Under the pieces are notes generated by a model, which worked only from the letters and a program-made list of their open reading frames with translations, made no database searches and was not told where the DNA came from. The position numbers and the translations under genes are program-made. A stretch of DNA of 64,000 nt from Pseudoclavibacter terrae (GTDB lineage: Bacteria; Actinomycetota; Actinomycetes; Actinomycetales; Microbacteriaceae): contig NZ_WBJX01000004.1 in assembly GCF_008831075.1 (NCBI RefSeq), positions 297,358 through 361,357 on the forward strand. The letters run 5' to 3'. This document shows, one piece after another, positions 10,201 to 40,417 of the stretch; the first letter of the stretch is position 1, and the number at the start of each line of letters is the position of its first letter.

Positions 10201-10853
10201 GCGGAGACCTCCTGCAGCGAGTCGGCGACCGTGAAAGCGGCCCCCGTCGCATCCCGAACCTCGTCGACCGTCACGCCGGGTGCGAGCTCGATGAGCACGA
10301 GCCCCGAGTCCGTCACGTCGAGGACGGCGAGGTCGGTGATGATGCGGTCGATGCAGCCCTTGCCCGTGAGGGGCAGGGTGCACTGCTCGACGATCTTCGG
10401 CGAGCCGTCCTTCGCGACGTGCTCCATGACGACGAGCACGTGCTCGGCGCCGTTGACGAGGTCCATGGCCCCGCCCATGCCCTTGACCATCTTGCCCGGC
10501 ACGGCCCAGTTGGCGATGTCACCCTGCGCCGAGACCTGCATGGCGCCGAGGACGGCGTTGGTGACGCGCCCGCCGCGGATCATGCCGAAGCTCGCCGCCG
10601 AGTCGAAGAACGAGGCGCCGGGCAGCACGGTCACGGTTTCCTTGCCGGCGTTGATGAGCTTCGGGTCGGCTTCCCCCTCCCACGGGTACGGGCCGACGCC
10701 GAGGATGCCGTTCTCCGAGTGCAGCACCACCTCGATGCCGTCGGCGATGTAGTTGGGGATGAGCGTCGGCAGCCCGATGCCGAGGTTCACGTACGAGCCG
10801 TCTTTGAGCTCCTTGGCGGCGCGGGCGGCCATCTCGTTCCTGGTCAGCGGCAT
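10197..10853 (-). CDS. pcaJ: 3-oxoadipate CoA-transferase subunit B
   Basis: A 218-residue beta subunit of a class I CoA-transferase. It shows [10 protein letters not shown] near the N-terminus and the catalytic glutamate in HSENGILG (residue ~48), then [10 protein letters not shown]. With PcaI it moves CoA from succinyl-CoA to 3-oxoadipate. The ATG at 10853 shares one base with the pcaI stop (TGATG), and the stop overlaps the pcaF GTG start. Size matches PcaJ/ScoB proteins (~215-220). A role in ketone-body (SCOT) metabolism is possible by sequence alone, but position within the pca operon decides. Confidence 0.93.
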
Positions 10854-11671
10854 CAGGCGTGTCCCCTCGAGTCGGTGGATGAAGTGGATGCGCCAGCGGC
10901 TTCGCGCGGCCGGACGGTGGTCTTCTCGATGGGCAGCTCGCCCGCCTGCTCTGCGCTCAGCACGATGACGCGGTCGACGTAGATGCCGGGCAGGTGGATC
11001 TCGTCGGGGTCGAGCTCGCCGGGTTCGACGAGGCGGTCGACCTCGGCGATCGTGATGCGTCCGGCCATGCCCGCGAGCGGGTTGAAGTTGCGGGTCGACT
11101 TCTCGAACTGGAGGTTGCCGTGGCGGTCGCCGACGGCGGCGCGGACCAGCCCGAAGTCGGTGCTGATGGCCGTCTCGAGCACGTACTCCTTGGCGGCGCC
11201 GAAGACGTCGAAGGGGCGCTGCTCCTTGGGTTCGCTGACGAGGCCGACGGTGCCGTCGGAGTTGTAGCGGATGGGCATCCCACCTTCCGAGACCATGGTG
11301 CCGGCGCCGGTCGCCGTGTAGAAGGCGGGAACGCCGACGCCGCCGGCGCGGAGCCGCTCGGCGAGCGTGCCCTGCGGGGTGAGCTCGACCTCGATCTCAC
11401 CGGACAGGTACTGGCGCGCGAACTCCTTGTTCTCGCCGATGTAGCTGGCGATGACGCGGCGGATGCGCCCCTCGGAGAGCAGCTCGCCGAGGCCCCAGCC
11501 GTCGACGCCGCAGTTGTTGGAGACGACCTCGAGGCCGTCGACGCCGAGCGCCTGGATGGCCCGGATGAGGGTGATCGGCACGCCGGAGAGGCCGAAGCCT
11601 CCGACCGCGAGGGACGATCCCGCCGGGATGTCGGCGACGGCGTCGGCCGCCGAGGCGTAGGTCTTATCCAC
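10853..11671 (-). CDS. pcaI: 3-oxoadipate CoA-transferase subunit A
   Basis: A 272-residue alpha subunit of the same CoA-transferase: GGFGLSGVP near residues 24-32 and a conserved [11 protein letters not shown] segment. It is longer than many alpha subunits (~230) because of a C-terminal tail of about 30 residues ending Ser/Thr-rich. The GTG at 11671 lies six bases after a strong AAGGAG and overlaps the last eight bases of pcaL; the frame runs further upstream only as a shadow of pcaL. The subunit pair acts in the cytoplasm as a heteromer. Confidence 0.92.
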
Positions 11672-12950
11672 GTTCTGCTCCTTCGTTGGGGCTGGATTCT
11701 TGGTCGGTGCCGTTGCCGGCTGCGGTCCCGCCGCTGCGGCCGGCGGCAGCCGCGAACTCGGCGTCAATCTCCGCGAACACGCCGCGCGCGATGCCGAGAG
11801 CGCCGTTGGCGGGCGGCAGCCCGGCGTAGAGGGCCGTGTGCAGGATGACTTCGGCGATCTCGGCGCGCGACAGGCCGTTCCTGAGGGCGGCGCGCACGTG
11901 CATCCGGATCTCGGCCTCGTGCGACCCGGTGACGAGGCTCGCGAGGGTCGCGATGGACCGCTCGCGGCGGGACAGCTCGTCGCGCGCCCAGATCTCGCCC
12001 CACGCGTAGCGGGTGATGAAGTCCTGGAACGGCGCCGTCTCGGCGGTTGTGCCGGCGACGGCCCGGTCGACGTGCGCGTCGCCGAGCACCTCGCGGCGCA
12101 CGCGCATCCCCTGCTCATGCGCGGCGGCCTGCGTCGACTGGCCCTGCGACGCGGATGCGCGCAGGTGCGTCGTGAGGAGGCGGGCGGCGGCGTCCGGGTC
12201 TTCGAGCGCGGCCAGGTGGGCGGTGCCCGCGATGGTCGAGTGGTAGCCGTTCGGGATGCGCTCGGTGAGCGCCTGCATGGCCTCTGGCGTCGTGACGGCG
12301 TCGTGTTCGCCGCTCACGACGAGGGTCGGGGCGCGCAGGGAACCGAGCGAAGCGGTGCGGTCGAAGGCGGCGAGCGCCTCGTTGCAGCGCGCGTACGACT
12401 CGTCGTCGATGTCGATGAGCGTCGAGAGCGATCGCGCGGCGGCCGAGAGCGGGTGCTGCTCGAGGAAGCCGGGCGCGAACCAGCGCTCGGCGCTGCCCGT
12501 GACGAGCGACGCGGTTCCGGATGCGCGCACCCCGCTGGCGCGTTGCTCCCAGCCCTCGGTGGTGCCGATCTTCGAATCGGTGCAGAAGAGGGCGAGGCTC
12601 TTCACGCGGTCGGGGTGCGCGAGGGCCAGTTCGAGGGCGATGGCCCCGCCGAGCGAGAGCCCGGCGAGGTGGAACGCACCGCCGCCGGCTTCCTCGACGA
12701 CGTCGAGCACCGCATCCGCCAGCTCGGCGATCGTGAACGGCTCGGCCGTGGCCGGGCTGGAGCCGTGACCCGGGAGGTCGAGGCGCAGGATGCGCAGCGT
12801 GCTGCCCGGCGTCGAGGCGCGGAGGGCCGCGACGGTGCCGTCCCAGAGCGCCATAGTCGTGCCGAGGGATGGGAGCAGGACCAGCAGCTCGTTCTGCGAC
12901 GCGGGCTGGGTGCCGGGTGCGAAGGCACCCCTGAGGCGTGGGATGGTCAT
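11664..12950 (-). CDS. pcaL: Fused 3-oxoadipate enol-lactonase / 4-carboxymuconolactone decarboxylase
   Basis: A 428-residue fusion. Residues ~1-265 are an alpha/beta-hydrolase with nucleophile elbow GLSLGG, acid in GEHDAVT and His in GTAHLAAL (PcaD, enol-lactone hydrolase). Residues ~280-400 are a carboxymuconolactone decarboxylase domain (GMRVRREVLGDAHVDRA, later RNGLSRAEIAEVILHTA) (PcaC). Two consecutive pathway steps are thus in one chain, as in PcaL of Streptomyces and Rhodococcus. The last ~30 residues are low complexity. The ATG at 12950 has GAGGAG upstream and overlaps the pcaB stop. Confidence 0.95.
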   Translation of the reverse strand: MTIPRLRGAFAPGTQPASQNELLVLLPSLGTTMALWDGTVAALRASTPGSTLRILRLDLPGHGSSPATAEPFTIAELADAVLDVVEEAGGGAFHLAGLSLGGAIALELALAHPDRVKSLALFCTDSKIGTTEGWEQRASGVRASGTASLVTGSAERWFAPGFLEQHPLSAAARSLSTLIDIDDESYARCNEALAAFDRTASLGSLRAPTLVVSGEHDAVTTPEAMQALTERIPNGYHSTIAGTAHLAALEDPDAAARLLTTHLRASASQGQSTQAAAHEQGMRVRREVLGDAHVDRAVAGTTAETAPFQDFITRYAWGEIWARDELSRRERSIATLASLVTGSHEAEIRMHVRAALRNGLSRAEIAEVILHTALYAGLPPANGALGIARGVFAEIDAEFAAAAGRSGGTAAGNGTDQESSPNEGAERG

Positions 12951-14227
12951 GGTGTCTCCTCGCTTCGCGCGGTGGTCTGCTCGGGGCGTTTGCCGTCGCG
13001 GTCGCTGTCGGGCCCGCCGTCACGGTCGCCGTCGGGCCTGGCGTCCTGGTACAGGAACCGGCTGATGGCGGCATTCACGACCCGATTGGCTGCCTGCAGC
13101 GTGACCTGGTCGGCGCCCGCGACGGCGGAGTCGGCGAGGTGGTGGCGGGCGGTCTCTCGCTCGACGGTGACGCGGTCGAGGGATGCGGCGAGCCGGCGCG
13201 CGGACACGCCCGCGAGCTCGAGGAGGCGGCGCAGCGCATCCCATTCAGCGTGCCATTCGCCGGCCGGTCGCTCGTCTTGCGAGACCGCAGCGGACGCGAC
13301 CGTCGCCAGCAGGCCAGGTGCCTGCAGCGCGTTCGAGACGACGACGATGGGGGCGACGGGGTTCTGCTTGTGGGGCATGGCGGACGACGTGCCGCCGCCG
13401 CCGAGCGAGAGCTCGCCGACGCGCTCGCCGGAGGCGGTGACGAGGTCGCGGCCGATGCGGCCGAGCGCTGTGCACACGGCCGTGGTGGCGCTGGCGACGG
13501 CGAGCACGGGGGTGCGCTCGGCGTGCCAGGAGCGGCGAGGGTCGTCGAGGCCGAGGCCGGCGGCGAGGTGCGCTCGCAGGATGCTGGTGGTCTGCGCACC
13601 GGACCCGAGGCGGTCGGCCGCCTCGCCGGTGCCGACCCCTCCCCCGAACTGCACGGGGAAGGCGAGGCCGTCGATGGCGGCGATGGCGGAGGTGACGCCG
13701 TCGAGCCAGCCCGCGAACTGCGCGCCGAGCGTGCTCGCGGCGGCCTGCCGGCCGAGGGTGTAGGCGACGCGGGGCGAGCGGCGTTCGGCGTCGGCGAGGC
13801 CTTGGAGGCGGGTGCCCGCGGTGACCAGGTCGGCGCGCACGGCCGTGAGCGCGTCGCGCGCGTGCAGCATGCTGGCGGAGTCGACGATGTCCTGGCTCGT
13901 CGCGCCGGCGTGCAGGCGCGGGGCCTCGACACCGGCGGAGGCGAGGGATGCGCGCAGCTGGCGCACGAGCTCCGGCACGATGACGCCGTCGGCTTCGATA
14001 CCGTCGCGCAGCGCAGCGGCGTCGAGGTCGGCGGCTTCGATGTCCGTCGCGGCCGCGCTGGCGTCGCGCGACTCGAGGGAGGCCCAGGCGCGCAGCAGCT
14101 CGGCCTCGACGACGAGCATGCCCCGCACGAGGCCGCCGAACTCGTCGGATGCCGCCCCGGAGCCCGTCCCGCGGGCCCCTGACTCGCGAGCATCCGTCTG
14201 GCGGGAGTCTGCCTCGCCCGCGCTCAC
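12947..14227 (-). CDS. pcaB: 3-carboxy-cis,cis-muconate cycloisomerase
   Basis: A 426-residue member of the fumarase/aspartase superfamily. The signature loop SSAMPHKQNP carries the catalytic serine region, and GATSQDIVDS is the second conserved region. It lactonises the ring-fission product of protocatechuate to 4-carboxymuconolactone. The GTG start at 14227 overlaps the pcaG stop (GTGA). The C-terminal ~30 residues are Asp/Arg-rich and look unstructured. Position between pcaG and pcaL makes the assignment safe over adenylosuccinate lyase. Confidence 0.95.
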   Translation of the reverse strand: MSAGEADSRQTDARESGARGTGSGAASDEFGGLVRGMLVVEAELLRAWASLESRDASAAATDIEAADLDAAALRDGIEADGVIVPELVRQLRASLASAGVEAPRLHAGATSQDIVDSASMLHARDALTAVRADLVTAGTRLQGLADAERRSPRVAYTLGRQAAASTLGAQFAGWLDGVTSAIAAIDGLAFPVQFGGGVGTGEAADRLGSGAQTTSILRAHLAAGLGLDDPRRSWHAERTPVLAVASATTAVCTALGRIGRDLVTASGERVGELSLGGGGTSSAMPHKQNPVAPIVVVSNALQAPGLLATVASAAVSQDERPAGEWHAEWDALRRLLELAGVSARRLAASLDRVTVERETARHHLADSAVAGADQVTLQAANRVVNAAISRFLYQDARPDGDRDGGPDSDRDGKRPEQTTARSEETP

Positions 14228-14805
14228 AGTTCCTGCCCGAAGTCGAAGAAGACGGTCTCGCCGTCGCCTTGGAGGCGGATGTCGAAGCGGTAGCTGCCCG
14301 GGGCATCCGGGTCCGCGATGAGGGTCGCACGACGGTCGGGGGCGATGCCCGCGAGCACGGCGTCTGCCTCGTTCTCGGCGGGCTGGTCGCCGAAGTACGC
14401 GCGGGTGAAGAGGTGGTGGAGGAGGCCTCGCGCGAAGATCGTGACGAGCAGGTAGGGCGCCGCTCCCGCATCCCGCCGTCCTGGCTTGATGGTCGTGAAC
14501 GAGTAGTGGCCGTCGCGGTCGGCGGGGGTGCGCCCGAAGCCGGTGAACGTGTAGCCGTCGCGTTCGAGGCTGCCGCGCTGCGCGACGGGTGCGCCGTCGG
14601 CGTCGAGCCCCCAGAGCTCGAGGATCGCATCGGGAACCGCCTCCCCTGCCCCGTCGGTGACGGTGCCGTGCAGGCGGATGGCGTCGGGGCGCCAGGGCGC
14701 GGCGATCTCGCCGCCGCGCTCGTAGGGCAGGGCGTAGCCGTAGAAGGGGCCGACGGTCTGCGACGGGGTCTGGCCGAACGACGTGGGCGTTGTTGCCTCA
14801 GGCAT
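14224..14805 (-). CDS. pcaG: Protocatechuate 3,4-dioxygenase alpha subunit
   Basis: A 193-residue intradiol dioxygenase-type subunit: TPSQTVGPFYGYALPY at the start, GTVTDGAGEAVPDAILELW in the beta-sandwich, then HYSFTTIKPG and PYLLVTIFARGLLHHLFTR. The alpha subunit lacks the full set of iron ligands, which lie in PcaH. The ATG at 14805 overlaps the last eight bases of pcaH, indicating translational coupling and equal subunit production. The reading frame is open further upstream, but only as a shadow of pcaH. Confidence 0.95.
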   Translation of the reverse strand: MPEATTPTSFGQTPSQTVGPFYGYALPYERGGEIAAPWRPDAIRLHGTVTDGAGEAVPDAILELWGLDADGAPVAQRGSLERDGYTFTGFGRTPADRDGHYSFTTIKPGRRDAGAAPYLLVTIFARGLLHHLFTRAYFGDQPAENEADAVLAGIAPDRRATLIADPDAPGSYRFDIRLQGDGETVFFDFGQEL

Positions 14806-15601
14806 GGTCGGTGTCCTCCGGTTCCATCCACGTGGACTTCGATCCGGTGAGCACGATGTCCCACTTGTAGCCGATCGCCCACTCGTGCTCGCTGACGTCG
14901 TGGTCGTAGTCCGCGACGAGCCTGGCTCGCGCGGCGGGGTCGACGATGGACTGGTAGATGGGGTCGAGCGCGAAGAGCGGGTCGCCGGGGAAGTACATCT
15001 GCGTGATGAGGCGCTGCGTGAACTGCGTGCCGAACAGCGAGAAGTGGATGTGCGCGGGCCGCCACGCGTTGCGGTGGTTCTTCCACGGGTACGCGCCGGG
15101 CTTGATGGTGGTGAGGCGGTACTCGCCGTTGTCGCCCGTGATGATGCGGCCGACGCCCGTGAAGTTCGGGTCAAGCGGGGCGGGGTGCTGGTCGCGTTTG
15201 TGCACGTAGCGGCCGGAGGCGTTGGCCTGCCAGATCTCGACGAGCTGGCCGCGCACGGGGCGGCCTTCGCCGTCGAGGATGCGACCGGAGACAATGATGC
15301 GCTCGCCGATGGGTTCGCCGTTGTGCTGGATGGTGAGGTCGGATTCCTCAGCCGCCACGTCCGTGTGCCCGAAGGCCGGTGAGACGAGTTCGATCTCCTC
15401 GGGGTCGGCGCGCACGAGCTGGTGCGTGGGGTGGCGCAGCGCGACCGAGCGGTACGGGGCGAAGTCGCGCAGCGGGTGGCTGCGGGCATCGTCGGCGTGG
15501 GCCGCGTGGGTGTCGGCGATCTGCTGCGAGATGTGCGCCTGGCTGACGAGCGAGTCGACGGGAACGTCGAGCGTCTCGGGTCGTCCCTGTCCGGCGCTCA
15601 T
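14798..15601 (-). CDS. pcaH: Protocatechuate 3,4-dioxygenase beta subunit
   Basis: A 267-residue catalytic subunit. The four non-haem Fe(III) ligands known for the family can be placed: Tyr in GRYVHKRD, Tyr in KPGAYPWKN, and the two His in RPAHIHF. It opens the ring of protocatechuate between the two hydroxyls. The N-terminal ~45 residues (HISQQIADTHAAHADDARS) are longer than in pseudomonads. The ATG at 15601 overlaps the pobA stop (ATGA), so the hydroxylase and dioxygenase are coupled. Confidence 0.96.
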   Translation of the reverse strand: MSAGQGRPETLDVPVDSLVSQAHISQQIADTHAAHADDARSHPLRDFAPYRSVALRHPTHQLVRADPEEIELVSPAFGHTDVAAEESDLTIQHNGEPIGERIIVSGRILDGEGRPVRGQLVEIWQANASGRYVHKRDQHPAPLDPNFTGVGRIITGDNGEYRLTTIKPGAYPWKNHRNAWRPAHIHFSLFGTQFTQRLITQMYFPGDPLFALDPIYQSIVDPAARARLVADYDHDVSEHEWAIGYKWDIVLTGSKSTWMEPEDTDHA

Positions 15602-16860
15602 CGTGCATCCACGAACGGGAGGCCGGCGTACTGCTCGGCGAGGCTGACCTGGGCGGCGTGCGAGGAGGTGACGTAGCGGATCTGCCCGAGCTGGCGTTGG
15701 AAGTCGAAGGCGCTCTGCTCGGCGGATCCGTCGGCGGGGTGCACGTGGAGCATGTCGGTCATCCACTGCGAGAAGTGCTGCACCTTCCACTGCCGGTCGA
15801 GGGCCTTGTCGCTGTACTGCTCGAGGCCCGTGTCGTCGCCGGCGTAGTGGGCTTGGAGGGCTTCGGCGAGGAGGGCGACGTCGGCGATGGCCGAGTTGAG
15901 GCCTTTCGCGCCGGTGGGGGGCACGATGTGGCCGGCGTCGCCGACGAGGTAGAGGCGGCCGTAGTTGAGGGTGGAGACGACGAAGCTGCGCATGGGCAGG
16001 ATCGATTTCTCGGTGATGGGGCCTTCGGTGAGGGTCCAGCCTTCGGTGCCGAGGCGCGTCTGGAGGGCCGCCCAGATGCGTTCGTCGCTCCAGTTGGCGA
16101 TGTCGTCGTCTGGGCTGACCTGCAGGTAGAGGCGCGAGACGGTGCTGGAGCGCATGGAGTGCATGGCGAAGCCGTCGCGGTGGAGGGCGTAGATGAGGTC
16201 GTCGGTGGAGGGGGCGACGTCGGCGAGGATGCCGAGCCACGCGAAGTCGTAGACGCGTTCGGCGACGTCGAGGGTGCCTTCGGGGAAGGTGCGGCGGCAG
16301 ATGCCGTGGTAGCCGTCGGCGCCGATGATGTAGTCGCAGTCGAGGGTGATGCGCTCGCCGTTCGGGGCCGTGTAGGCGAGGGAGGCGCGGTCGCCGTCGT
16401 GCGTCGATTCGATCTGGGTCGGTTGCACGTCGGTGGCTTCGAAGATGAGCTGCGAGCCGAGGCGCTCGTGTTCGGCGACGAGGTGGTGGACGAGCGCCTG
16501 CTGGCCGTAGACGGTGACGGTGCGGCCGGTGAGCTCGGCGAAGTCGATGTGGTGGCGCTCCCCCTCGTGCTGCAGGTAGATGCCGTGGTGGGTGAGGCCG
16601 TTGGCTTTGAGATCGGCGTCGAGGCCGAACTTGGCGAGGAGGTCGACGGAGTCCTGTTCGAGCACGCCGGCGCGGATGCGGCCGAGCACGTACGCCTTGT
16701 CGCGTGCTTCGAGGATGCGGTAGTCGATGCCCGCCTGGCCCAGGATGTGGCCGAGCAGCAGCCCAGCCGGCCCGGCTCCGATGATCGCCACCTGTGTGGA
16801 CTGGCGTGCGCCGGCCTCTGCAGGCTGGGCGCCCTGGCCGTGGCTCTCGTCGTTCGTCAT
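15598..16860 (-). CDS. pobA: 4-hydroxybenzoate 3-monooxygenase
   Basis: A 420-residue FAD monooxygenase producing protocatechuate from 4-hydroxybenzoate. It shows GAGPAG (residues ~28-33), RIRAGVLEQDSVDLL, DYIIGADGYHGICRR and LVGDAGHIVPPTGAKGLN, all characteristic of PobA. The family is about 390-395 residues; the extra ~25 are a polar N-terminal tail. The ATG at 16860 has GAGG ten bases upstream; the longer frame to 16959 lacks a site. It is the first gene of the operon, so the pathway is entered from 4-hydroxybenzoate. No PobR/PcaR gene or transporter is adjacent. Confidence 0.94.
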   Translation of the reverse strand: MTNDESHGQGAQPAEAGARQSTQVAIIGAGPAGLLLGHILGQAGIDYRILEARDKAYVLGRIRAGVLEQDSVDLLAKFGLDADLKANGLTHHGIYLQHEGERHHIDFAELTGRTVTVYGQQALVHHLVAEHERLGSQLIFEATDVQPTQIESTHDGDRASLAYTAPNGERITLDCDYIIGADGYHGICRRTFPEGTLDVAERVYDFAWLGILADVAPSTDDLIYALHRDGFAMHSMRSSTVSRLYLQVSPDDDIANWSDERIWAALQTRLGTEGWTLTEGPITEKSILPMRSFVVSTLNYGRLYLVGDAGHIVPPTGAKGLNSAIADVALLAEALQAHYAGDDTGLEQYSDKALDRQWKVQHFSQWMTDMLHVHPADGSAEQSAFDFQRQLGQIRYVTSSHAAQVSLAEQYAGLPFVDAR

Positions 16861-32256: not shown

Positions 32257-32378
32257 GGGCGGGGGCAGCACGGACGGCTAGCGAGGAACGATCGCCCCCG
32301 GTGGTATCGCCGGGTTGGGCTTTGCGTGTCCCAGAGCGACGCGTGCCGATGCGGTGCGGTGCGGTGCGCATCCATCTC

Positions 32379-32406
32379 AGTTAAGAAACGCGTGTACACT
32401 AACTCC
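32379..32406 (+). promoter_or_regulatory. Leaderless promoter and operator of the TetR gene
   Basis: TACACT (32395-32400) sits six bases before the ATG at 32407, the spacing of a -10 box for a leaderless transcript. It overlaps an 8 bp palindrome GTGTACAC (32392-32399) and is framed by AGTTA (32379-32383) and TAACT (32400-32404), a likely TetR operator. Confidence 0.5.
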
Positions 32407-32958
32407 ATGGCCCGCCCGCGTCGACTCGAAGATGAACAGCTGCTGGCTCGGATCGTCGAGGCTCTGGAGCAGCGCACCGACTTCAGTCCGTGGTCGCTTG
32501 CGGATGTTGCCCCGGCGGCCGGTATCGGCGCCTCGGGCTTGGTCAAGCGCTTCGGCTCGAAGGCGGGGCTCGTCCAGGCGCTCACCCGGCGGTGGGTCGA
32601 GCTCATCCCACAGGGACCTCCGCCCGCCGGAGTGGACCCTGGCGACGCGCTCCGCGAGTACGTGGGGCGCGAATTCGGCGCTGGCTCGGCGGCAGGCGCC
32701 CTGTACGCCCTGTCGGAGATCATCGGGGAACTTCGAGACCCGATGCTCAGCGCGCTGCTGGCTGAGGGCTGGGAGAGACAAGCCACCCGACTCGCTGAAC
32801 TCCTCGAGGCGATGGACCTTCCGCGCCTCGCCGACGCGCGGGCCGGAGGCGCGGTGCTGCTCGATGCCCTCCACGGGTCCCTGCTGCGCACTGCAGTGAA
32901 CCGCGACCCCGTTTCTTCCCTGATGACCCTCGATCGATTTCTGGAGATGTGGAAATGA
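32407..32958 (+). CDS. TetR-family transcriptional regulator
   Basis: A 183-residue regulator with an N-terminal helix-turn-helix (SLADVAPAAGIGASGLVKRFGSK) and a helical ligand domain. The ATG at 32407 is the natural start; no ribosome binding site precedes it but a -10 box does, so translation is probably leaderless. The next gene, a DHFR-like reductase, starts four bases before its end, so both are one unit and the regulator likely represses this pair. Confidence 0.88.
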   Translation: MARPRRLEDEQLLARIVEALEQRTDFSPWSLADVAPAAGIGASGLVKRFGSKAGLVQALTRRWVELIPQGPPPAGVDPGDALREYVGREFGAGSAAGALYALSEIIGELRDPMLSALLAEGWERQATRLAELLEAMDLPRLADARAGGAVLLDALHGSLLRTAVNRDPVSSLMTLDRFLEMWK

Positions 32959-33515
32959 ACTCTCGTACCTGGCGCGGCCGCGTCTTCATCGGCGTGAGCG
33001 CAGACGGCAAGATCGCGCGGGAGGACGGCACACTCGAGTGGCTGACCGACCCGTCGCCCCGACCGCACGCGGTGAGTGGGAACAGCGACCGCCCCGCACT
33101 CGTCTGGGAGACGTTCTCCCCGACCATCGACACGATCGTCATGGGGCGTGCAACGTACGAGTCGGTGCTGGGCTTCGACGGGTGGCCGTTCGACGGGAAG
33201 CGGGTGATCGTGCTCACCTCGCGAACAGCGGTCGAGGATGCGCGCGTGACGAGGGCCGAGTCCGTCGACGAGGCGACCCGCCTCCTCGAGGAAGGCGGAG
33301 CGGCGGAGGTGTACATCGACGGTGGCCGCACCATCCAGTCGTTCCTTCGCGCAGGCCTCGTCGACGAGATCACCCTGTCGGTCGCCCCCATCATTCTCGG
33401 CTCTGGACGATCACTCTTCGGTGCCCTCGACGCCGACGTACTGCTCACGGTCCGGGGCAGTCATGCCACCGAGGATGGCCTCGTCCGAACCACGTACGAC
33501 GTGACGACCCGGTGA
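32955..33515 (+). CDS. Dihydrofolate reductase-family protein (RibD C-terminal domain)
   Basis: A 186-residue single-domain reductase: FIGVSADGKIAR at the start, DTIVMGRATYESV, GKRVIVLTSR, then EVYIDGGRTIQSFL and APIILGSGRSLFG. These are the RibD_C/DHFR-like landmarks of the YwjB/YyaP type, binding NADPH. True folate reduction is unlikely; the physiological substrate is unknown. ATG 32955 has GGAG eight bases upstream and overlaps the TetR stop; a GTG two codons earlier is possible. Convergent with the kinase gene at 33561. Confidence 0.88.
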   Translation: MNSRTWRGRVFIGVSADGKIAREDGTLEWLTDPSPRPHAVSGNSDRPALVWETFSPTIDTIVMGRATYESVLGFDGWPFDGKRVIVLTSRTAVEDARVTRAESVDEATRLLEEGGAAEVYIDGGRTIQSFLRAGLVDEITLSVAPIILGSGRSLFGALDADVLLTVRGSHATEDGLVRTTYDVTTR

Positions 33516-33560
33516 GATGGATCGCGTGAGTTCGCGTCGAGCGGTCGAGCACCAGGAACG

Positions 33561-34358
33561 CTAGCGCCAGAAGGCAGCGCCCGCCGTGGTTGCGTACTGG
33601 TCGTGACCCTGCAGCCCCGAGAATGCCGCGGCTCCGCTGATCCCCGCTGCGAAACCGAGCTGCGCGGGGACGACGGGAGCGGTGCAGTCGATGAGTGGCA
33701 GGAATTTCTCCGGCGTCGAGGAGATGCCGCCCCCGATGACGATGAGATCCGGGGACATCAAGCGCTCGAGCGCGTCGAGGTAGATCTGGAGGTTGCCTGC
33801 CCACGCGACCCAGGACAGCCCGAGTCGTTCCCGTGCCACGGAGGAAGCTTTGGACTCCCAGTCGATTCCGTTGATCTCCAGGTGGCCGAGTTCGCTGTTC
33901 GGGATGAGAGTTCCGTTGTGAATGAGGGCGGTGCCGATGCCTGTGCCGAGCGTGACGAGAATCACGAGACCGCCTTCCCCCTTGGCGGCGCCGTAGCGCG
34001 TCTCTGCGTAGCCTGCCGCGTCGGCGTCGTTCATCGCGACAGCGGTTCGGTTGAGTTCGTTGGAGAGATGGGTAGTCGCGTCGAAGCCGATCCAGCCGGG
34101 ATCCATGTTCGCCGCGCTGAGTGTCACGCCCTTGCTGACGACGGACGGCAGACACACGCCGATCTGCTGGTGTTCGCCGGCAGGGTCGAGAAGCTGGACA
34201 CAACCGGCGATGGTGTCGACGACGTGGACAGGTGCACCACCTCGGGGCGTTGGCGCGTGCACTGCCTCTCCGACGAGCTTTCCGGTGCGGAGATCGACGA
34301 GCCCGGCTTTGATGGTCGTGCCGCCGACATCGACGCCGATGGTCGCATGTGGATTCAT
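33561..34358 (-). CDS. ppgK: ROK-family polyphosphate-dependent glucokinase
   Basis: A 265-residue kinase, the length of actinobacterial polyphosphate glucokinases. It has the phosphate-binding GVDVGGTTIKAGLVDL at the start, SAANMDPGWIGFDA, MNDADAAGYAETRYGA and TLGTGIGTALIHNG, matching PpgK segment by segment as remembered from M. tuberculosis. It phosphorylates glucose with polyphosphate and/or ATP. The ROK zinc motif (CxCGxxGC) is absent, as in PpgK. ATG 34358 has GGAGG upstream and overlaps the exporter stop (ATGA). As last gene of the glucoside operon it would activate the glucose released by the GH3 enzyme. Confidence 0.82.
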   Translation of the reverse strand: MNPHATIGVDVGGTTIKAGLVDLRTGKLVGEAVHAPTPRGGAPVHVVDTIAGCVQLLDPAGEHQQIGVCLPSVVSKGVTLSAANMDPGWIGFDATTHLSNELNRTAVAMNDADAAGYAETRYGAAKGEGGLVILVTLGTGIGTALIHNGTLIPNSELGHLEINGIDWESKASSVARERLGLSWVAWAGNLQIYLDALERLMSPDLIVIGGGISSTPEKFLPLIDCTAPVVPAQLGFAAGISGAAAFSGLQGHDQYATTAGAAFWR

Positions 34359-35980
34359 GCCCTTGAGTCCTCCGTGATTCCTTCGTCGAGCGTGGGGACC
34401 GTGCCCGACATACCGGCACTGGTCTCGACAACTTCGGTTTCGAGGTCTTCGATTCGCTGCCCTCGTGTCCGGGTACTCAGCTCGCGTGCGGGCAGGAGCG
34501 CGATGGCGATGATGGTGACGATGGCCAGAGGGGCCGAGTAGAGGAATGCGTCCGCGACACCGCGCGCGTAGGCCTCTTCGACGATTCCGCGGAGGGGCTG
34601 ACCGAGTGTCTGCAGGTCGGCGATCTTGGTGAGGTCGACGGTCCCAGCGTCGATACCGGCTGTCTGGAGCTCCGTCGCGTTGCTCTGGACGACGGATTGG
34701 GCTCGGATGCTGAGGATCGCGCCGAGGAGCGTGACGCCGATAGTTCCGCCAAGGCTTCTGAAGAATGCGACTCCGGCGCTCGCGACGCCGACTTGGCGTG
34801 GGTCGACGTTGATCTCTGCCATGAGGACAAGGTTCTGCATGACGCAGCCGATTCCGATGCCGACGAGTGCCATAGCCACCCACAGGTAAGGCATCGGAGT
34901 GGACACGGTCAGCATGCCGAGCATGGTCACGCCGACTGCGAGTGAGCTCGCGCCGACGATCATCCAGGGTTTCCACTTCCCGGTTCGGCTGATGAGGGCG
35001 CCTGCCACAGTGGAGGCGATCGTCACTGCGATGAGCTGCGGCAAGGCGATCAACCCGGATTCCGTGGTGGATGCGCCTCGCGAGAGCTGGAGGTACTGGC
35101 TCACGAACACGGCCGTGCCGTAGGTTGCGACACCGACGGACAGACTCGCGAGCACCGTCAGCACGAACCCACGATTCCGGAAGAGGGAGAGCGGGATGAT
35201 GGGCTCTTTTGCGCGTGCTTCGACGATCACGGCGAGAATCAGCAGGATGACCGAACCGCACCCGAGCACCAACGATGTCACGGAGAGCCAGGGGAACCAG
35301 TTCCCTGCCTGAGAGACCCAGATGAGAAGACCTGAGACGCCGGCCGAGATGAGGAGCGCACCCGCGTAGTCGATGTGGACTCGCGTGTTGCGTCGGGGCA
35401 CGCGGAGGGTGATGGAGACAACGACGAGGGAGATCACGGCCACCGGGATGGCGCTGTAGAAGTTCCAGCGCCATCCCAGTGCGTCCGTGAGGAACCCGCC
35501 CAGGAGCGGACCGCCGATGGTGCCGACCGCCATCACGGCACCGAAGAGACCCATGTACTTGCCGCGGTCCCGCGGGCTGATGATGTCGGCGAGCACGATC
35601 TGCACGAGCGTGAGGAGACCGCCGGCGCCGACGCCTTGCACTGCGCGTCCGGCAATCAGCATCTCGGGCCCTGTCGCGAGCCCGCACACCACGGAGCCGA
35701 CCAGGAAGATCGTCAGCGCGGCGTTGATCAGCGCTCGTCTCCCAACCATGTCCGAGAGCTTTCCCCAGATCGGGGTCGTCACGGTGATGGTGAGGAGCGC
35801 GGCGGTCACGGTCCACGTGAGTGTGGCTTGTGTGCCGCCGAGGTCGCTGATGATGCGCGGCAGGGAGGTGGAGATGATCGAGCTGGAGAGCATCGCTACC
35901 AGCAGGCCCAGCATGAGACCGGTCAGAGTTGGGCCGACGCGGACGGGGCGTTGGGTGGAGGTTTCGTCAAGCGTTGACAC
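34355..35980 (-). CDS. MFS transporter, DHA2 (EmrB/QacA) family, 14-helix exporter
   Basis: A 541-residue drug:H+ antiporter-type protein. After a 15-residue polar start come 14 hydrophobic helices; the loop 2-3 motif A reads GKLSDMVGRRALI and motif C is GGLLTLVQ then GAVMAVGTIGGPLLGGFL. The C-terminal ~50 residues are acidic and cytoplasmic. Such proteins export amphipathic compounds. Its place between a beta-glucosidase and a glucokinase suggests export of the aglycone freed by hydrolysis; that is inference. Confidence 0.88.
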   Translation of the reverse strand: MSTLDETSTQRPVRVGPTLTGLMLGLLVAMLSSSIISTSLPRIISDLGGTQATLTWTVTAALLTITVTTPIWGKLSDMVGRRALINAALTIFLVGSVVCGLATGPEMLIAGRAVQGVGAGGLLTLVQIVLADIISPRDRGKYMGLFGAVMAVGTIGGPLLGGFLTDALGWRWNFYSAIPVAVISLVVVSITLRVPRRNTRVHIDYAGALLISAGVSGLLIWVSQAGNWFPWLSVTSLVLGCGSVILLILAVIVEARAKEPIIPLSLFRNRGFVLTVLASLSVGVATYGTAVFVSQYLQLSRGASTTESGLIALPQLIAVTIASTVAGALISRTGKWKPWMIVGASSLAVGVTMLGMLTVSTPMPYLWVAMALVGIGIGCVMQNLVLMAEINVDPRQVGVASAGVAFFRSLGGTIGVTLLGAILSIRAQSVVQSNATELQTAGIDAGTVDLTKIADLQTLGQPLRGIVEEAYARGVADAFLYSAPLAIVTIIAIALLPARELSTRTRGQRIEDLETEVVETSAGMSGTVPTLDEGITEDSRA

Positions 35981-36038
35981 GACTCAGCGGTCCTTTCAGG
36001 GGCTGCAGGTTTGGCAGTACTGGCGGCGGCGGGGACAG

Positions 36039-38330
36039 TCAGAAGTTGCGGTTGCCCTTTTGTGCGCTTTCGACTCGGCTGGCGTTGAGGCGCTGCAGCA
36101 GGTCCGTGAGCTGCGCCTTGGGCAGGTAGCGTCCCGCGCTCAGGGTTCGCAGTCGTCCGATGGGGATGCGCATGCCCGACTTGTTCGCGTCGATACCGAG
36201 TTCCTGCGACGCGACACTCTGCGTGTTTCCATTTCGGCCCATGATGTCGGCGATTGCCGCCGCGCCGATGGGGTCGCGGAGGAGCTCAGCGACGGTCGAT
36301 TCCTCGGTAAACGGACGCCGCACCGCGTCGCCGTCGAGCCGCACAGTGCCGGATCGACGGATGTCTCGGCTGGATGCGGCGGCGTGGATGCCGTACTCGC
36401 CGCCTTCGACCACCCAGCGGTGGAGACCAATGTCCCAATAGGCGAGATCCTGGCGCGGGATCGTGATGGTCACATGCGCGGTCTCCCCCGCCTTGATGCC
36501 GACGCTCCGGTATCCGCGAAGCTCCATCGGTGGCCGCTGAACACCGCCCTCCTTCGACACGTAGAGCTGGATGACCTCCCGGCCGTCAACTGAACCGGTG
36601 TTGCGCACTGCCACCTCGACGCGGATGCCGTCGGGTGTGGCGACGAGCTGCAGGTCTGCGTACTCGAACTGCGTGTAGGAAAGGCCGTGCCCGAAGGGGA
36701 AGGCGACCTCACGACGGAGGTGGTCGTACCCGCGGTACCCGACGAAGATGCCCTCGCCGTAGCGAACGTGCAGCTGGTCGCCCGGGTAGGTCAGGTACGA
36801 CGGCGCGTCTTCCAGGCGAACGGGAGCGGTCTCCGCGAGCCTGCCGGATGGGTTCACGCGTCCGAGGAGCACGTCGGCGATCGCTCCACCGCCCGCCTGC
36901 CCCAGGATCGTTGCATCCAGCACGGCTGGCACCGACTCGGCGATCTCAGCGAGCGCGATGACACCCCCGTGAATGAGCACAGCTACGGTCTTCGGCTGAG
37001 CTGCAGCAACAGCGCGGAGCAGCTGGATCTGTTCCGCGGGCACATTGATGTGGGTTCGGTCAGTTCCCTCCGCCTCGTCTGCTGCGGTCAGACCGAGGAA
37101 GACCACCGCTGTGTCGGCAAGCTTGGCGGCTTCAACGGCTTGCTGGCGGAGATCGGCAGCGTCCGTGCCGTCGTGGCGATAACCCTCGAAAGCTCGCAAG
37201 TCGACGTCCGGAGCGAGTGCGCGCAACTCGTCGAATGGAACGTCGGTGCGTGTCGGAATGACTCTGGAGCTGCCACCACCCTGAATCCGGGGCGAGGTCG
37301 CGAACGGTCCGACGACCGCAACCGTGCCTGTGCCTCCGAGCGGCAGCACCTGCTCGTCGTTCTTCAGCAGGACGATGGCGCGGCCGGCCACTTCGCGTGC
37401 GAGGGCGTGGTGCTCCGCCTCGTCGAAGGTCGTGTCCGGATGCGCGATGCGGGCCTGTTCCGCGCGTTCGGCGAGGTCCAGCATCCGCTGCACGCTCTGG
37501 TCTAAGACTGCTGGGTCCAGAGACCCGTCTTCTATGGCCGCGACGACCTCGGCGTCCGCCCCGAGGTCACCACCCGGCATCTGCAGGTCGGTGCCGGCGC
37601 GCAATGCGCGCACCCGGTCGCCGACGGCGCCCCAGTCGCTGACCACGGCACCGTCGAATCCCCACTCGCCGCGGAGGACTTCGGTCAGGAGCCAGTGGTT
37701 CTCGGTTGCTGGAGTGCCATTGAGCTTGTTGTAGGACGCCATCACGGTCCACGGCTTGGCTTCTCGGACCACCCGCTCGAACGTGCGCAGGTAGATCTCC
37801 CGCAGCGGGCGCTCGTCGATGTCAGAGCTGGAGCGCATCCGGTCCAGCTCTTGGTTGTTGGCCGCGAAGTGCTTCAACGACGCGCCGGCCCCGCTGCGCT
37901 GCAGTCCAGTGACCCAGGCCGATCCGATCTGTCCGCTGAGCAGCGGGTCTTCGGAGAAGTACTCGAAATTGCGTCCACAGCGGGGGTCCCGCTTGATGTT
38001 CACTCCCGGGCCGAGCAAGACGTCGGTGTCGAACGAACGGGCCTCCCGCCCCAGGGCCTCGCCGAGTCGCTCGACGAGTTCCGGGTCCCAGGTCTGCGCG
38101 ACTGCGACCGCTGGAGGAAAGCACGTGGCCGGCTCACTCGGGGCGATGCCCATGTGCGGGGTGTCTCCGGCGGACTGGTGACGGACTCCGTGGGGGCCGT
38201 CTTCCATCGTGACGACTGGCACGCCAGCGGGTTCTTTCGTCACCCAGTACGCGGCACCGCTGGTGAGCGCGGCCTTGTCTTCGAGCGTCAACGCATCAAC
38301 GCTGTGACGTGCTGTGGTGAGGTGTGACAT
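36039..38330 (-). CDS. Glycoside hydrolase family 3 beta-glucosidase
   Basis: A 763-residue cytoplasmic GH3 enzyme without signal peptide. Domain order: (alpha/beta)8 barrel (about 1-310) with LGPGVNIKRDPRCGRNFEYFSEDP and KHFAANNQE, nucleophile Asp in VVSDWGA; the alpha/beta sandwich domain (about 320-550); then a fibronectin-III-like domain (GYDHLRREVAFPFGHGLSYTQF, later LYVSKEGGVQRPPMELRGY). The C-terminal ~90 residues past that domain are not typical and may mediate oligomerisation. It hydrolyses beta-glucosides inside the cell, fitting the sugar importer directly upstream (28 bases). Confidence 0.92.
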   Translation of the reverse strand: MSHLTTARHSVDALTLEDKAALTSGAAYWVTKEPAGVPVVTMEDGPHGVRHQSAGDTPHMGIAPSEPATCFPPAVAVAQTWDPELVERLGEALGREARSFDTDVLLGPGVNIKRDPRCGRNFEYFSEDPLLSGQIGSAWVTGLQRSGAGASLKHFAANNQELDRMRSSSDIDERPLREIYLRTFERVVREAKPWTVMASYNKLNGTPATENHWLLTEVLRGEWGFDGAVVSDWGAVGDRVRALRAGTDLQMPGGDLGADAEVVAAIEDGSLDPAVLDQSVQRMLDLAERAEQARIAHPDTTFDEAEHHALAREVAGRAIVLLKNDEQVLPLGGTGTVAVVGPFATSPRIQGGGSSRVIPTRTDVPFDELRALAPDVDLRAFEGYRHDGTDAADLRQQAVEAAKLADTAVVFLGLTAADEAEGTDRTHINVPAEQIQLLRAVAAAQPKTVAVLIHGGVIALAEIAESVPAVLDATILGQAGGGAIADVLLGRVNPSGRLAETAPVRLEDAPSYLTYPGDQLHVRYGEGIFVGYRGYDHLRREVAFPFGHGLSYTQFEYADLQLVATPDGIRVEVAVRNTGSVDGREVIQLYVSKEGGVQRPPMELRGYRSVGIKAGETAHVTITIPRQDLAYWDIGLHRWVVEGGEYGIHAAASSRDIRRSGTVRLDGDAVRRPFTEESTVAELLRDPIGAAAIADIMGRNGNTQSVASQELGIDANKSGMRIPIGRLRTLSAGRYLPKAQLTDLLQRLNASRVESAQKGNRNF

Positions 38331-38358
38331 GAATCTCCTTGATCGAGGCGGATGTGAG

Positions 38359-39624
38359 TTAGCGGGTTTTTCGCAGCATGCCGAACAGCGCGCTGGACCC
38401 TAAGAGGAGCGCGCCTCCGATGAGGAATGCTGGCCCGAAGGATCCCGTGATGGCGATGACTGCAGAGGTCAAGGCCGGCGCCACCGCTTGCCCACCGGTC
38501 GCGGCGACGTTGAGGAACCCGAGGTCTTTCGCTGCCTGGTCTCCGCTCGGCAGCACTTCCGTGCTGACGACCTGTTCGATGGAGTTGTAGATGCCACCAC
38601 CGAGGCTGTTTGCTGCGCCGAACACGAAGATCGCCCACGGTGCCTGCACGAAGAAGAGGAAGACGGTCCCAAAGGCCATGAGTATCGATGCGATGACGAT
38701 GAAGATCTTGCGGCGCTTGAACTTGTCCGAGATGGGACCGATCGCGGTTCCCACGAACATGGATCCGATAAGCGAGATGATGCCGAGGACGGGGAGGATC
38801 CGGGCTGCTTCTTCGGTCGAGGCGCCGAGGTAGTCGGTGACGATGTAGAGCTGGTAGCCGGTCACGACGTAGGTGCCGATGATGTTCAGAACTCGACCGC
38901 TGAACACGAGGTAATAGTCGCGGGATTCCTTGATGGGGAATGCGAAGGACGCGATGAGGGACTTGCGGCTGAACGGTTCGCGAGGCTGATCCCTGTTGGA
39001 GGGCTCGGGCGCGATCACTGCGATCAAGGGCCCGGCGAGGAACATGAGACCGGCGAAGATGAACATGCCCAGGGTCGGGTCGGTGAGGAAGCGCGGAGCT
39101 GTGATCTGACCGAGCAGCGCGATACCGAGCAGCTGGCCGAGCCCGTAGAGCGCGGACATCGTGCCGCGACGAGCGACGGGGACTCGGTCGGGCAGCATGG
39201 CCAGCAGCGGTGCGATGACTGCGTTCAGGAAGAACTGGAAGAGGCACCAGGCGAAGATCATCATCGGGATCGTCTGGGATGCGGCGACGAAGGCTAGCGA
39301 GAGGCCAGCGCCGGTCGACCCGAAGAGAATCCACGGGATGCGGCGTCCGAAGCGGGAGCGTGTGAGGTCGGAGAGAGCACCGAAGAGCACGTTCGCCACA
39401 GTCGCAACGATCACACCGCTCGTCGCGATGACGGCGACGATGGCGATTTTGGAGTCGGGCGCCATGATCTCGATGCGCGCGGGCAGCAGGATCGCATTGA
39501 AGGCCATGAAGGGGCCGAGGCAAAGCATCGATCCGACCAGGAGCGCGATGCCGATGCGTACGGGTTTCCACGGTTGCACGGGCACCGAGGTGGTGTTGTC
39601 AACAACAGTGACTTGTTCGTTCAT
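38359..39624 (-). CDS. MFS transporter, probable glycoside/sugar importer
   Basis: A 421-residue, 12-helix major facilitator: helix 2-3 loop GALSDLTRSRFGRRIPWILFG and loop 8-9 IGPISDKFKRRKIFIV. The FGRR(I)PW loop motif is characteristic of sugar:cation symporters of the GPH type and relatives. First gene of the operon, divergent from the TetR gene, with a perfect palindrome in the promoter region. It probably brings the beta-glucoside into the cell for the GH3 enzyme. Start ATG 39624 is the only good candidate. Confidence 0.85.
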   Translation of the reverse strand: MNEQVTVVDNTTSVPVQPWKPVRIGIALLVGSMLCLGPFMAFNAILLPARIEIMAPDSKIAIVAVIATSGVIVATVANVLFGALSDLTRSRFGRRIPWILFGSTGAGLSLAFVAASQTIPMMIFAWCLFQFFLNAVIAPLLAMLPDRVPVARRGTMSALYGLGQLLGIALLGQITAPRFLTDPTLGMFIFAGLMFLAGPLIAVIAPEPSNRDQPREPFSRKSLIASFAFPIKESRDYYLVFSGRVLNIIGTYVVTGYQLYIVTDYLGASTEEAARILPVLGIISLIGSMFVGTAIGPISDKFKRRKIFIVIASILMAFGTVFLFFVQAPWAIFVFGAANSLGGGIYNSIEQVVSTEVLPSGDQAAKDLGFLNVAATGGQAVAPALTSAVIAITGSFGPAFLIGGALLLGSSALFGMLRKTR

Positions 39625-39660
39625 CGTTGAACTTTCTGACTGGAGGCTGAGGTAGGTACG

Positions 39661-39719
39661 CTACTTGCGATATCGCAAGTAGCGGGAGCTTACGGCTCTA
39701 CTAGCGTCATCGCAAGTAG
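39661..39719. promoter_or_regulatory. Twin operators between glucoside operon and TetR gene
   Basis: 39661-39682 is a perfect 22 bp palindrome with half-site CTACTTGCGAT. 39698-39719 is a second, degenerate copy (eight of eleven positions pair) ending in the same ATCGCAAGTAG. Both lie in the 113-base gap between the divergent genes, where a TetR dimer could control both directions. Confidence 0.85.
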
Positions 39720-39737
39720 GCGTGCAAGACTGCCCCC

Positions 39738-40334
39738 ATGACTTCCACCAGAACGCGCCTCTCCGCGACCGCACGAAAGGCGCAGATCGTCAGCGAGGCG
39801 GACATTCTGATTCGAGAGCGCGGGTTCCAGGCACTGTCGATCGCTGCGGTCGCGGAAGCCTGCGGCGTCTCACGCATGGGCGTGCTTCACCACGTTGGCT
39901 CCAAAGAGAACCTGCTCATCGAGGTCCTCGAAGCGAAGGAGCGGGAGACCACGGTCGAGGTCGCGGCACTCCTCGGCGACACTGGCGAGCAGGATGCGCG
40001 TCGAGTGCTTGACGTGATGATGAACCGCAACATGCGGCACCGTGAAGTGATCCATCTCTTCACCGTGCTGGCGGCGGAGTCGATCAACCCCGAGCACCCC
40101 GCGCACGCCTACTTCGCGGAGCGGCTCCAACGAGGCGCGCGACTGCTGGCCCCCCTGTTTGTCGAGTACTCGGACGAACCAGAGCTCACCGCGCTTGAGG
40201 TCTTGTCCTTCATGGATGGGCTTCAGTTGAACTGGCTGCGCGATCCAACAATCGACATCGCGGCACGATGGGACGACTTTCTGTCGAGGTACCTCATCCC
40301 AACGCGCGAGCGTGCCCTGCCCGCGCAGAGCTGA
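39738..40334 (+). CDS. TetR-family transcriptional regulator of the glucoside operon
   Basis: A 198-residue regulator. The N-terminal TetR helix-turn-helix reads ARKAQIVSEADILIRERGF, then AVAEACGVSRMGVLHHVGSKENLL; the C-terminal domain (ERLQRGARLLAPLF onward) is of the BetI-like type. Divergent from the importer/GH3/exporter/kinase operon with two matching palindromes between, so it most likely represses that operon and itself. The ligand is probably the glucoside or its aglycone. Confidence 0.9.
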   Translation: MTSTRTRLSATARKAQIVSEADILIRERGFQALSIAAVAEACGVSRMGVLHHVGSKENLLIEVLEAKERETTVEVAALLGDTGEQDARRVLDVMMNRNMRHREVIHLFTVLAAESINPEHPAHAYFAERLQRGARLLAPLFVEYSDEPELTALEVLSFMDGLQLNWLRDPTIDIAARWDDFLSRYLIPTRERALPAQS

Positions 40335-40417
40335 GCCAGCGCTCCGTTCCGCCGCTGCAGCGGACGCTCGCCGCCTGGCACATTGTTTCGGGCTCAAGGA
40401 GGTTCAGGATCGGCGGG

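What the first reader, a model, noticed from the sequence alone, without database searches (positions are those of the whole stretch)
33561..40334. Self-contained beta-glucoside uptake, cleavage, aglycone-export and glucose-activation operon under a TetR switch
Four minus-strand genes are tightly packed (gaps of 28 and 58 bases, then an ATGA overlap): sugar-type MFS importer, cytoplasmic GH3 beta-glucosidase, 14-helix DHA2-type exporter and PpgK-like glucokinase. A divergent TetR gene and a perfect 22 bp palindrome control both directions. The combination of importer, hydrolase and an exporter in one unit suggests that the cell takes in a plant phenolic glucoside, keeps the glucose and pumps out a toxic aglycone. 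DHA2 pumps under TetR control are common, but I do not know a described system with this exact set.
Basis: partly seen in the sequence, partly recalled or inferred. Interest (0 to 1): 0.75.

Follow-up and report, generated by a model that had tools for sequence, protein, structure and literature searches.

The report
Glucoside import, cleavage and aglycone-export cassette
A soil-type actinobacterium carries a movable set of five genes that looks built to take in a plant-type sugar conjugate, cut off and keep the glucose, and pump the remaining molecule back out; the pump's link to the cutting enzyme recurs in other genera, but the substrate is unknown.

Summary
In detail: MFS, GH3, DHA2 and PpgK genes are tightly packed on the minus strand (33561-39624), with a divergent tetR (39738-40334). 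The operator palindrome is longer than reported (26 bp, 39659-39684) and has a second copy 37 bp away. All four have the divergent TetR and an SDR dehydrogenase between GH3 and DHA2 that the window lacks. GH3 and DHA2 trees agree. In pCI3 and G118 the importer sits on the other strand, yet carries the same operator. Two sister genomes lack the 6.9 kb holding tetR plus all four genes. Best reading: a mobile 'in-cut-out' beta-glucoside module with a polyphosphate glucokinase and a DHA2 pump for the aglycone. Against it: the pump gene is broken in G477 and in a second pCI3 record. MFS-GH3 operons are known (amygdalin, Bifidobacterium); the linked pump is the new part. Substrate, ligand and transport directions are inferred, not shown. 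New variant of a known kind.

The parts
39738..40334 (+). TetR-family regulator, 198 aa, divergent
   Evidence: TetR_N 39.7 bits; 49-65% identical TetR divergent in all four related loci
39659..39684 (.). operator 1: perfect 26-bp palindrome CGCTACTTGCGATATCGCAAGTAGCG
   Evidence: equivalent site at the same offset from the tetR start in G477 and Leifsonia Root4
39698..39719 (.). operator 2: imperfect 22-mer, 37 bp start to start from operator 1
   Evidence: G477 has a second site at the same offset
38359..39624 (-). MFS transporter, 421 aa, probable glycoside importer (motif SDLTRSRFGRRIPW, which I recall as typical of GPH/sucrose carriers)
   Evidence: Pfam MFS_1 and MFS_2; alignment of 11 relatives with several motif positions invariant; 64-78% relatives in three of four related loci
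36039..38330 (-). GH3 glycosidase, 763 aa, no N-terminal hydrophobic segment (taken as cytoplasmic); D232 and E421 align with the catalytic pair of 2x40
   Evidence: catalytic roles of 2x40 D242/E458 recalled
34355..35980 (-). DHA2-family (EmrB-type) MFS exporter, 541 aa
   Evidence: TIGR00711 above cut-off; clade of five DHA2 proteins that sit beside the GH3 clade
33561..34358 (-). PpgK-type polyphosphate glucokinase, 265 aa
   Evidence: NF045942 above cut-off; closest solved structure 1woq polyphosphate/ATP-glucomannokinase
33517..40416 (.). whole present/absent cassette (tetR plus the four genes)
   Evidence: flanks 57 and 49 bases apart without it in sister genomes G007 and G006

Best explanation
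A horizontally acquired catabolic cassette for a beta-glucoside whose aglycone the cell cannot use or does not tolerate. The MFS protein brings the intact glucoside in, probably with protons. The cytoplasmic GH3 cuts off glucose. The PpgK-type kinase traps the glucose as glucose 6-phosphate with polyphosphate or ATP. The DHA2 pump expels the aglycone. TetR holds both directions shut by binding two tandem operators and is released by the aglycone or the glucoside. In the relatives an SDR modifies the aglycone before export; the window lacks that step. Shown here: the gene set, its conservation, shared operator-like sites, unit-wise presence/absence, congruent trees. Inferred: substrate, transport directions, binding by TetR, inducer, order of steps.
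For: Gene families above curated cut-offs. In the 109 GH3 loci compared in one call, a close relative (56% or more) of the DHA2 gene lies downstream on the same strand in five; these five are one GH3 clade in a 48-row tree (SH-aLRT 100). The DHA2 proteins of these five form one clade (100) with the same two inner pairs as the GH3 tree. In 398 family genomes the two best non-self genomes for GH3 and for DHA2 are the same two. The divergent TetR is in 5 of 5, with CTACCTAC-N6-GTAGGTAG-type sites in the intergenic region, the window's in a drifted form. In pCI3 and G118, where the importer lies on the other strand, the stretch before it carries the same site at 15 of 16 positions (maximum 13 in 30 single-base shuffles of the pCI3 stretch). 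The empty site in G007 and G006 lacks tetR to ppgK as one piece. The own genome has a second MFS-GH78-GH3-...-PpgK cluster. Published: a GH3 in an operon with an MFS gene, both raised by amygdalin in Bifidobacterium (PMC9897726, passages and section 14); salicyl alcohol is secreted by Rahnella growing on salicin, exporter unknown (PMC9959693, passages).
Against: No substrate is shown. The pump gene is broken in two of the six records seen of this lineage: in G477 by two frame changes and in plasmid pCI3 of Clavibacter strain R1-1, where an IS1122 transposase gene abuts a shortened pump gene; so the pump can be lost while GH3 stays. The best named GH3 model is an arabinopyranosidase and its cut-off is not reached (783 of 1300 bits). 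The MFS model's best fold matches are antiporters and mixed MFS carriers, so fold does not give direction. The gph subfamily model is far below cut-off (42 of 231 bits). DHA2 relatives (E 1e-100 or better) are present in 199 of 398 family genomes, so the pump class is commonplace. Leifsonia Root4 lacks the MFS importer in the fetched stretch and has ABC transporter genes instead, with no operator in the 285 bases before them. No consensus sigma-70 promoter was found.
Confidence: 0.58

Rival explanations
1. Ordinary beta-gluco-oligosaccharide use (gentiobiose, cellobiose or arabinopyranosyl sugars); the DHA2 gene is an overflow or unrelated drug pump that happens to share the promoter.
For: The best-scoring GH3 models are sugar-chain enzymes; DHA2 pumps are common (199 of 398 genomes); the pump is broken in two of six records of the lineage.
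Against: The pump tracks this GH3 lineage through five loci in at least four genera with congruent trees, and an SDR comes with it in four of five; neither is needed for plain sugars.
Confidence: 0.18
2. The pump is only a safety valve: the aglycone is mainly catabolised in the cell (in relatives first by the SDR), for instance through the protocatechuate pathway encoded at 9-17 kb of the window.
For: Genes for 4-hydroxybenzoate 3-monooxygenase, protocatechuate 3,4-dioxygenase, PcaDC, a PcaIJ-type transferase and a thiolase are in the window; SDR in four of five loci.
Against: The pca genes lie outside the cassette, and I saw no aromatic ring-cleavage gene beside the lineage's GH3 in the annotated or named neighbours; most neighbours in G477 and G118 were read by eye only. 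The window lacks the SDR but kept the pump.
Confidence: 0.14
3. The module is mainly a defence against a glycosylated antimicrobial: DHA2 exports the intact compound or its product, and the sugar gain is incidental.
For: TetR-DHA2 pairs often answer toxic ligands (recalled); closest solved DHA2 structures are EfpA and EmrB.
Against: A linked uptake-type carrier and a glucokinase fit poorly with a pure defence unit; the carrier shares the operator with the pump even when split off.
Confidence: 0.08

Closest known systems
MFS-GH3 amygdalin operon of Bifidobacterium wkB204 (PMC9897726, passages and section 14 seen)
   Same: a GH3 and an MFS transporter in one operon, both raised by a toxic plant glucoside
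   Different: there with GH30 and a beta-galactosidase; the authors report the GH3 as secreted; no exporter, SDR or PpgK named in that section; sequence relation to the window's genes not tested
Salicin use by Rahnella with release of salicyl alcohol (PMC9959693, passages seen)
   Same: cell keeps the glucose part and releases the aglycone
   Different: a bgl system by way of salicin 6-phosphate; exporter not identified by the authors; here an exporter-type gene is in the same unit as the hydrolase
QdoR/LmrA flavonoid switches of Bacillus subtilis (PMC8481877, passages seen; the LmrB DHA2 pump is recalled)
   Same: repressor answering a plant aglycone, two operators at the target promoter
   Different: controls a dioxygenase (and, recalled, a pump), no glycoside uptake or hydrolase; no sequence relation tested
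TetR-GH3 pairs with AAAACC-N11-GGTTTT sites in many Actinobacteria (found here)
   Same: divergent TetR, GH3, in several loci an MFS carrier of the same family
   Different: other TetR group (26-36% identity), other site, no close DHA2 or SDR of this type beside GH3
Polyphosphate/ATP-glucomannokinase 1woq and PpgK
   Same: family model reached, closest solved structure
   Different: here inside a glycoside cassette, besides two other PpgK genes in the genome

Membership tests
Glycoside hydrolase family 3 | GH3 N and C domains | tested here: met
   PF00933, PF01915 and PF14310 above cut-offs
Glycoside hydrolase family 3 | catalytic Asp and Glu | tested here: met
   D232 and E421 align with D242 and E458 of 2x40; catalytic roles recalled
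exo-alpha-(1->6)-L-arabinopyranosidase NF041610 | curated score 1300 | tested here: not met
   783 bits
DHA2 drug exporters | TIGR00711 cut-off 230.2 | tested here: met
   247.6 bits
DHA2 drug exporters | export activity | not testable with these tools
   needs transport assay
Polyphosphate glucokinase (PpgK) | NF045942 cut-off 250 | tested here: met
   274.8 bits
GPH / sucrose-type symporters | Pfam MFS_2 cut-off 27 | tested here: met
   45.1 bits
GPH / sucrose-type symporters | TIGR00792 gph cut-off 231.35 | tested here: not met
   42.3 bits; so it is filed as an MFS protein that resembles GPH carriers, not as a member
GPH / sucrose-type symporters | closest fold among solved carriers | tested here: inconclusive
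   the 50 rows shown are mixed MFS carriers, SotB first
TetR regulators | TetR_N domain | tested here: met
   39.7 bits, cut-off 24
TetR regulators | binding to the palindromes, and ligand | not testable with these tools
   sites conserved but binding needs experiment; fold search of the TetR model was lost and not accepted again

The most novel reading that the evidence does not exclude
A mobile 'unmasking' cassette: bacteria import a host-made masked glucoside, keep its glucose and release the freed (in four relatives SDR-altered) bioactive aglycone through a pump dedicated to it, so that one self-contained block both feeds the cell and changes the chemistry around roots or in plant tissue, moving between genera and on plasmids.
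Probability: 0.32. Interest if true: 0.72.

Novelty: new variant of a known kind. Interest (0 to 1): 0.5.

Why it matters
Bacteria that feed on plant glucosides must dispose of the aglycone, often toxic. In the salicin study PMC9959693 the authors write that the export of salicyl alcohol could not be characterised because no prior knowledge of exporters is available (passages). A hydrolase and a pump tied together in five loci, in one predicted regulon with the carrier, give a concrete candidate for such an exporter and a simple deletion test. The operators also give a possible sensor whose ligand would name the substrate.

Tried and rejected
Rejected: that the arrangement is a chance neighbourhood. 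Rejected: that the GH3 can be called an arabinopyranosidase (cut-off missed). Rejected: that other genomes of the same genus carry the unit: nine were searched; the best GH3 among them is 53-54% identical, and the two put in the tree (G005, G006) fall in another branch. Rejected: a remnant SDR in the window; the GH3-DHA2 gap is 58 bases and the two best SDR hits in the genome are 31 and 35% identical.

Led nowhere: literature searches for the set. Searches found no paper; others (3 listed; 15; 1; 3; 10 of 258 listed) showed no such operon in titles and abstract starts. PMC5358740 (passages) mentions plasmid beta-glucosidases of Clavibacter; the name pCI3 does not occur in it. PMC11170127 (passages) concerns gut bacteria with GH3 thought intracellular. 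Sigma-70 scan found nothing. MFS fold comparison does not give substrate or direction; no GPH or sucrose carrier is in the 50 rows shown, which proves nothing. Two further GH3 loci from the family of G477 are not of this lineage. Distant DHA2 hits downstream of GH3 in L050 (26%) and L193 (30%) were set aside as other pumps. No repeat of 8 bases or more is shared by the two ends of the cassette (150 bases each). The operator consensus CTACCTAC-N6-GTAGGTAG was read by eye from L043, L183 and L124, so its fit there is circular; pCI3, L184 and the two importer-side sites are the tests. By that consensus the window's own sites score only 12 and 11 of 16, and one Bifidobacterium locus outside the lineage (L085) scores 13.
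Full report
What is there. On the minus strand between 39624 and 33561 lie four genes with gaps of 28 and 58 bases and a 4-base overlap: a 421-aa MFS transporter, a 763-aa GH3 glycosidase, a 541-aa DHA2-family pump and a 265-aa PpgK-type kinase. A 198-aa TetR gene runs the other way from 39738. Family models confirm each. The GH3 has no hydrophobic N-terminal segment, and its D232 and E421 align with D242 and E458 of 2x40 (catalytic roles recalled). The 113-base intergenic region holds a perfect 26-bp palindrome (39659-39684) and a second, 86% identical 22-mer 37 bp away. At up to three mismatches the pattern occurs elsewhere in the 3.9 Mb genome once, with three mismatches.

A lineage, not a chance neighbourhood. 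In the same 398 genomes the two best non-self DHA2 hits are in the same two genomes. Samples of 396 genomes of the order, 394 of the class, 121 of the genus of G477 and 255 of its family, which overlap in part, added G477 (71%) as the only further one above 60%. The plasmid collection added pCI3 of Clavibacter michiganensis insidiosus at 61%, in two records. A GH3 tree of 48 rows chosen from the loci held puts these five together with SH-aLRT 100. A DHA2 tree of 38 rows also joins their pumps (100), with window+G477 and Clavibacter+G118 as inner pairs in both (quick method, SH-aLRT only; of G477 one piece). In 109 GH3 loci compared, a DHA2 gene of 56% or more lies downstream in these five alone; two more have distant ones (26 and 30%).

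What the relatives add. G477 has TetR (65%), MFS (78%), GH3 (71%), then an SDR, then DHA2 (68-70% over the two main pieces, 53% over a third, split by two frame changes, so broken or mis-sequenced there). Leifsonia Root4 and G118 have TetR, GH3, SDR and DHA2. pCI3 of strain R1-3 has TetR, GH3, SDR and DHA2, and facing them a small GH3 with the MFS importer (64%). In pCI3 of strain R1-1 the same genes are there, but an IS1122 transposase gene sits at the end of a shortened pump gene. G118 has the same facing pair (importer 65%, small GH3 84% identical to that of pCI3). G118 and Clavibacter may be of one genus; G118 has no name here. The SDR is in four of five loci; the window alone lacks it, and the two best SDR hits in its genome are 31 and 35% identical. 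PpgK is in the window's version only, but a second cluster in the same genome (contig C10), MFS - GH78 rhamnosidase - GH3 - epimerase-like - PpgK, pairs GH3 and PpgK again.

Regulation. Reading from the tetR start, the window and G477 have two operator-like sites at the same two offsets (18 and 55), and Leifsonia has one at offset 55. The relatives share CTACCTAC-N6-GTAGGTAG; the window has CTACTTGC-N6-GCAAGTAG, and one site of G477 is a hybrid of both forms. In pCI3 and G118 a site with 15 of 16 matches also lies just before the importer on the other strand; the highest score in 30 single-base shuffles of the pCI3 stretch was 13, and no shuffles were made for G118. This is the strongest single argument that importer, hydrolase and pump answer one regulator. 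Other TetR-GH3 pairs use another site, AAAACC-N11-GGTTTT, at 11 or 12 of 12 in 15 of the 28 loci outside this TetR group; shuffle maxima there were 8 to 11.

One block. In two sister genomes the bases matching window 33516 and 40417 (G007), and 33518 and 40411 (G006), are 57 and 49 bases apart, with flanks 92-98% identical. The tetR and all four genes, ppgK included, are therefore present or absent as one 6.9-kb piece. G006 also lacks about 0.8 kb at 32358-33157; the stretch from G005 matched only on the right and is uninformative. Base composition of the block is 64.8% G+C against 68.2 and 69.5% beside it. With the nearest relative in another family and a plasmid copy in Clavibacter, gain by transfer is likelier than loss in the sisters, but loss is not excluded. 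No gene inside the block looks like a mobile element, and its ends share no repeat of 8 bases or more.

How it most likely works. Glucoside in through the MFS carrier; glucose cut off by GH3 in the cytoplasm; glucose phosphorylated by the PpgK-type kinase; aglycone (in relatives first altered by the SDR) out through DHA2; TetR released by aglycone or glucoside. Only the parts list, its conservation and its shared sites are shown. Direction of both carriers, substrate and ligand are inference. The MFS model has an ordinary MFS fold and does not tell direction; the TetR model is good (pLDDT 92) but its fold search was lost. That four of five loci have the SDR suggests an aglycone with an alcohol or ketone group. 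Its nearest solved relatives include proteins named C alpha-dehydrogenase (recalled as lignin aryl-ether enzymes), among many other SDRs, which is only a hint. The broken pump genes in G477 and in strain R1-1 show that GH3 can outlive the pump, which speaks for a pump needed only with some substrates or habitats, or against the reading.

Against what is known. An MFS-GH3 operon raised by a toxic plant glucoside has been described (amygdalin, Bifidobacterium wkB204; PMC9897726, passages and section 14). Release of an aglycone by a glucoside user has been described with the exporter unknown (PMC9959693, passages). Switches answering flavonoids are known (QdoR; PMC8481877, passages). I found no paper with GH3, importer and DHA2 pump in one unit in the searches, which cover open-licence papers only and of which I saw titles and abstract starts. 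Hence: a new variant of a known kind, with a testable candidate for a missing aglycone exporter.

Noticed in passing
L135 1-9703 (own genome contig C10): Second glycoside cluster: a LacI-like gene (by eye), MFS, GH78 alpha-L-rhamnosidase, GH3, epimerase-like protein and a PpgK 56% identical to the window's; suggests rhamnoglucoside use with its own PpgK.
   Followed up: partly
L044, L045, L048, L056, L127, L128, L131, L133 and others, region before tetR: A second, widespread TetR-GH3 group with the palindrome AAAACC-N11-GGTTTT between the genes, 11 or 12 of 12 in 15 of 28 loci.
   Followed up: partly
L208 13772-15418; L223 9890-11509; L209 7174-8973: A small GH3 (539-599 aa) recurs near the MFS carrier, 84% identical between pCI3 and G118 and 53% to the Arthrobacter ERGS1:01 plasmid.
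   Followed up: partly
L183 6182-7735: The DHA2 gene of G477 is split over two frame changes in a one-contig assembly: decaying gene or sequencing error.
   Followed up: no
L228 9101-11266: In pCI3 of Clavibacter strain R1-1 an IS1122 transposase gene adjoins a shortened pump gene, unlike the longer one of strain R1-3.
   Followed up: no
window 8986-16860: Protocatechuate pathway genes: 4-hydroxybenzoate monooxygenase, pcaHG, pcaDC fusion, pcaIJ-type transferase and a thiolase.
   Followed up: no
window 32358-33157: About 0.8 kb, covering a second TetR-like gene (22.6 bits, below Pfam's cut-off of 24), is absent from sister genome G006.
   Followed up: no
L184 about 6599-6630: A class relative (G959) has TetR (43%) and GH3 (58%) with overlapping CTACCTAC-type sites but no such pump or SDR beside them.
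   Followed up: no
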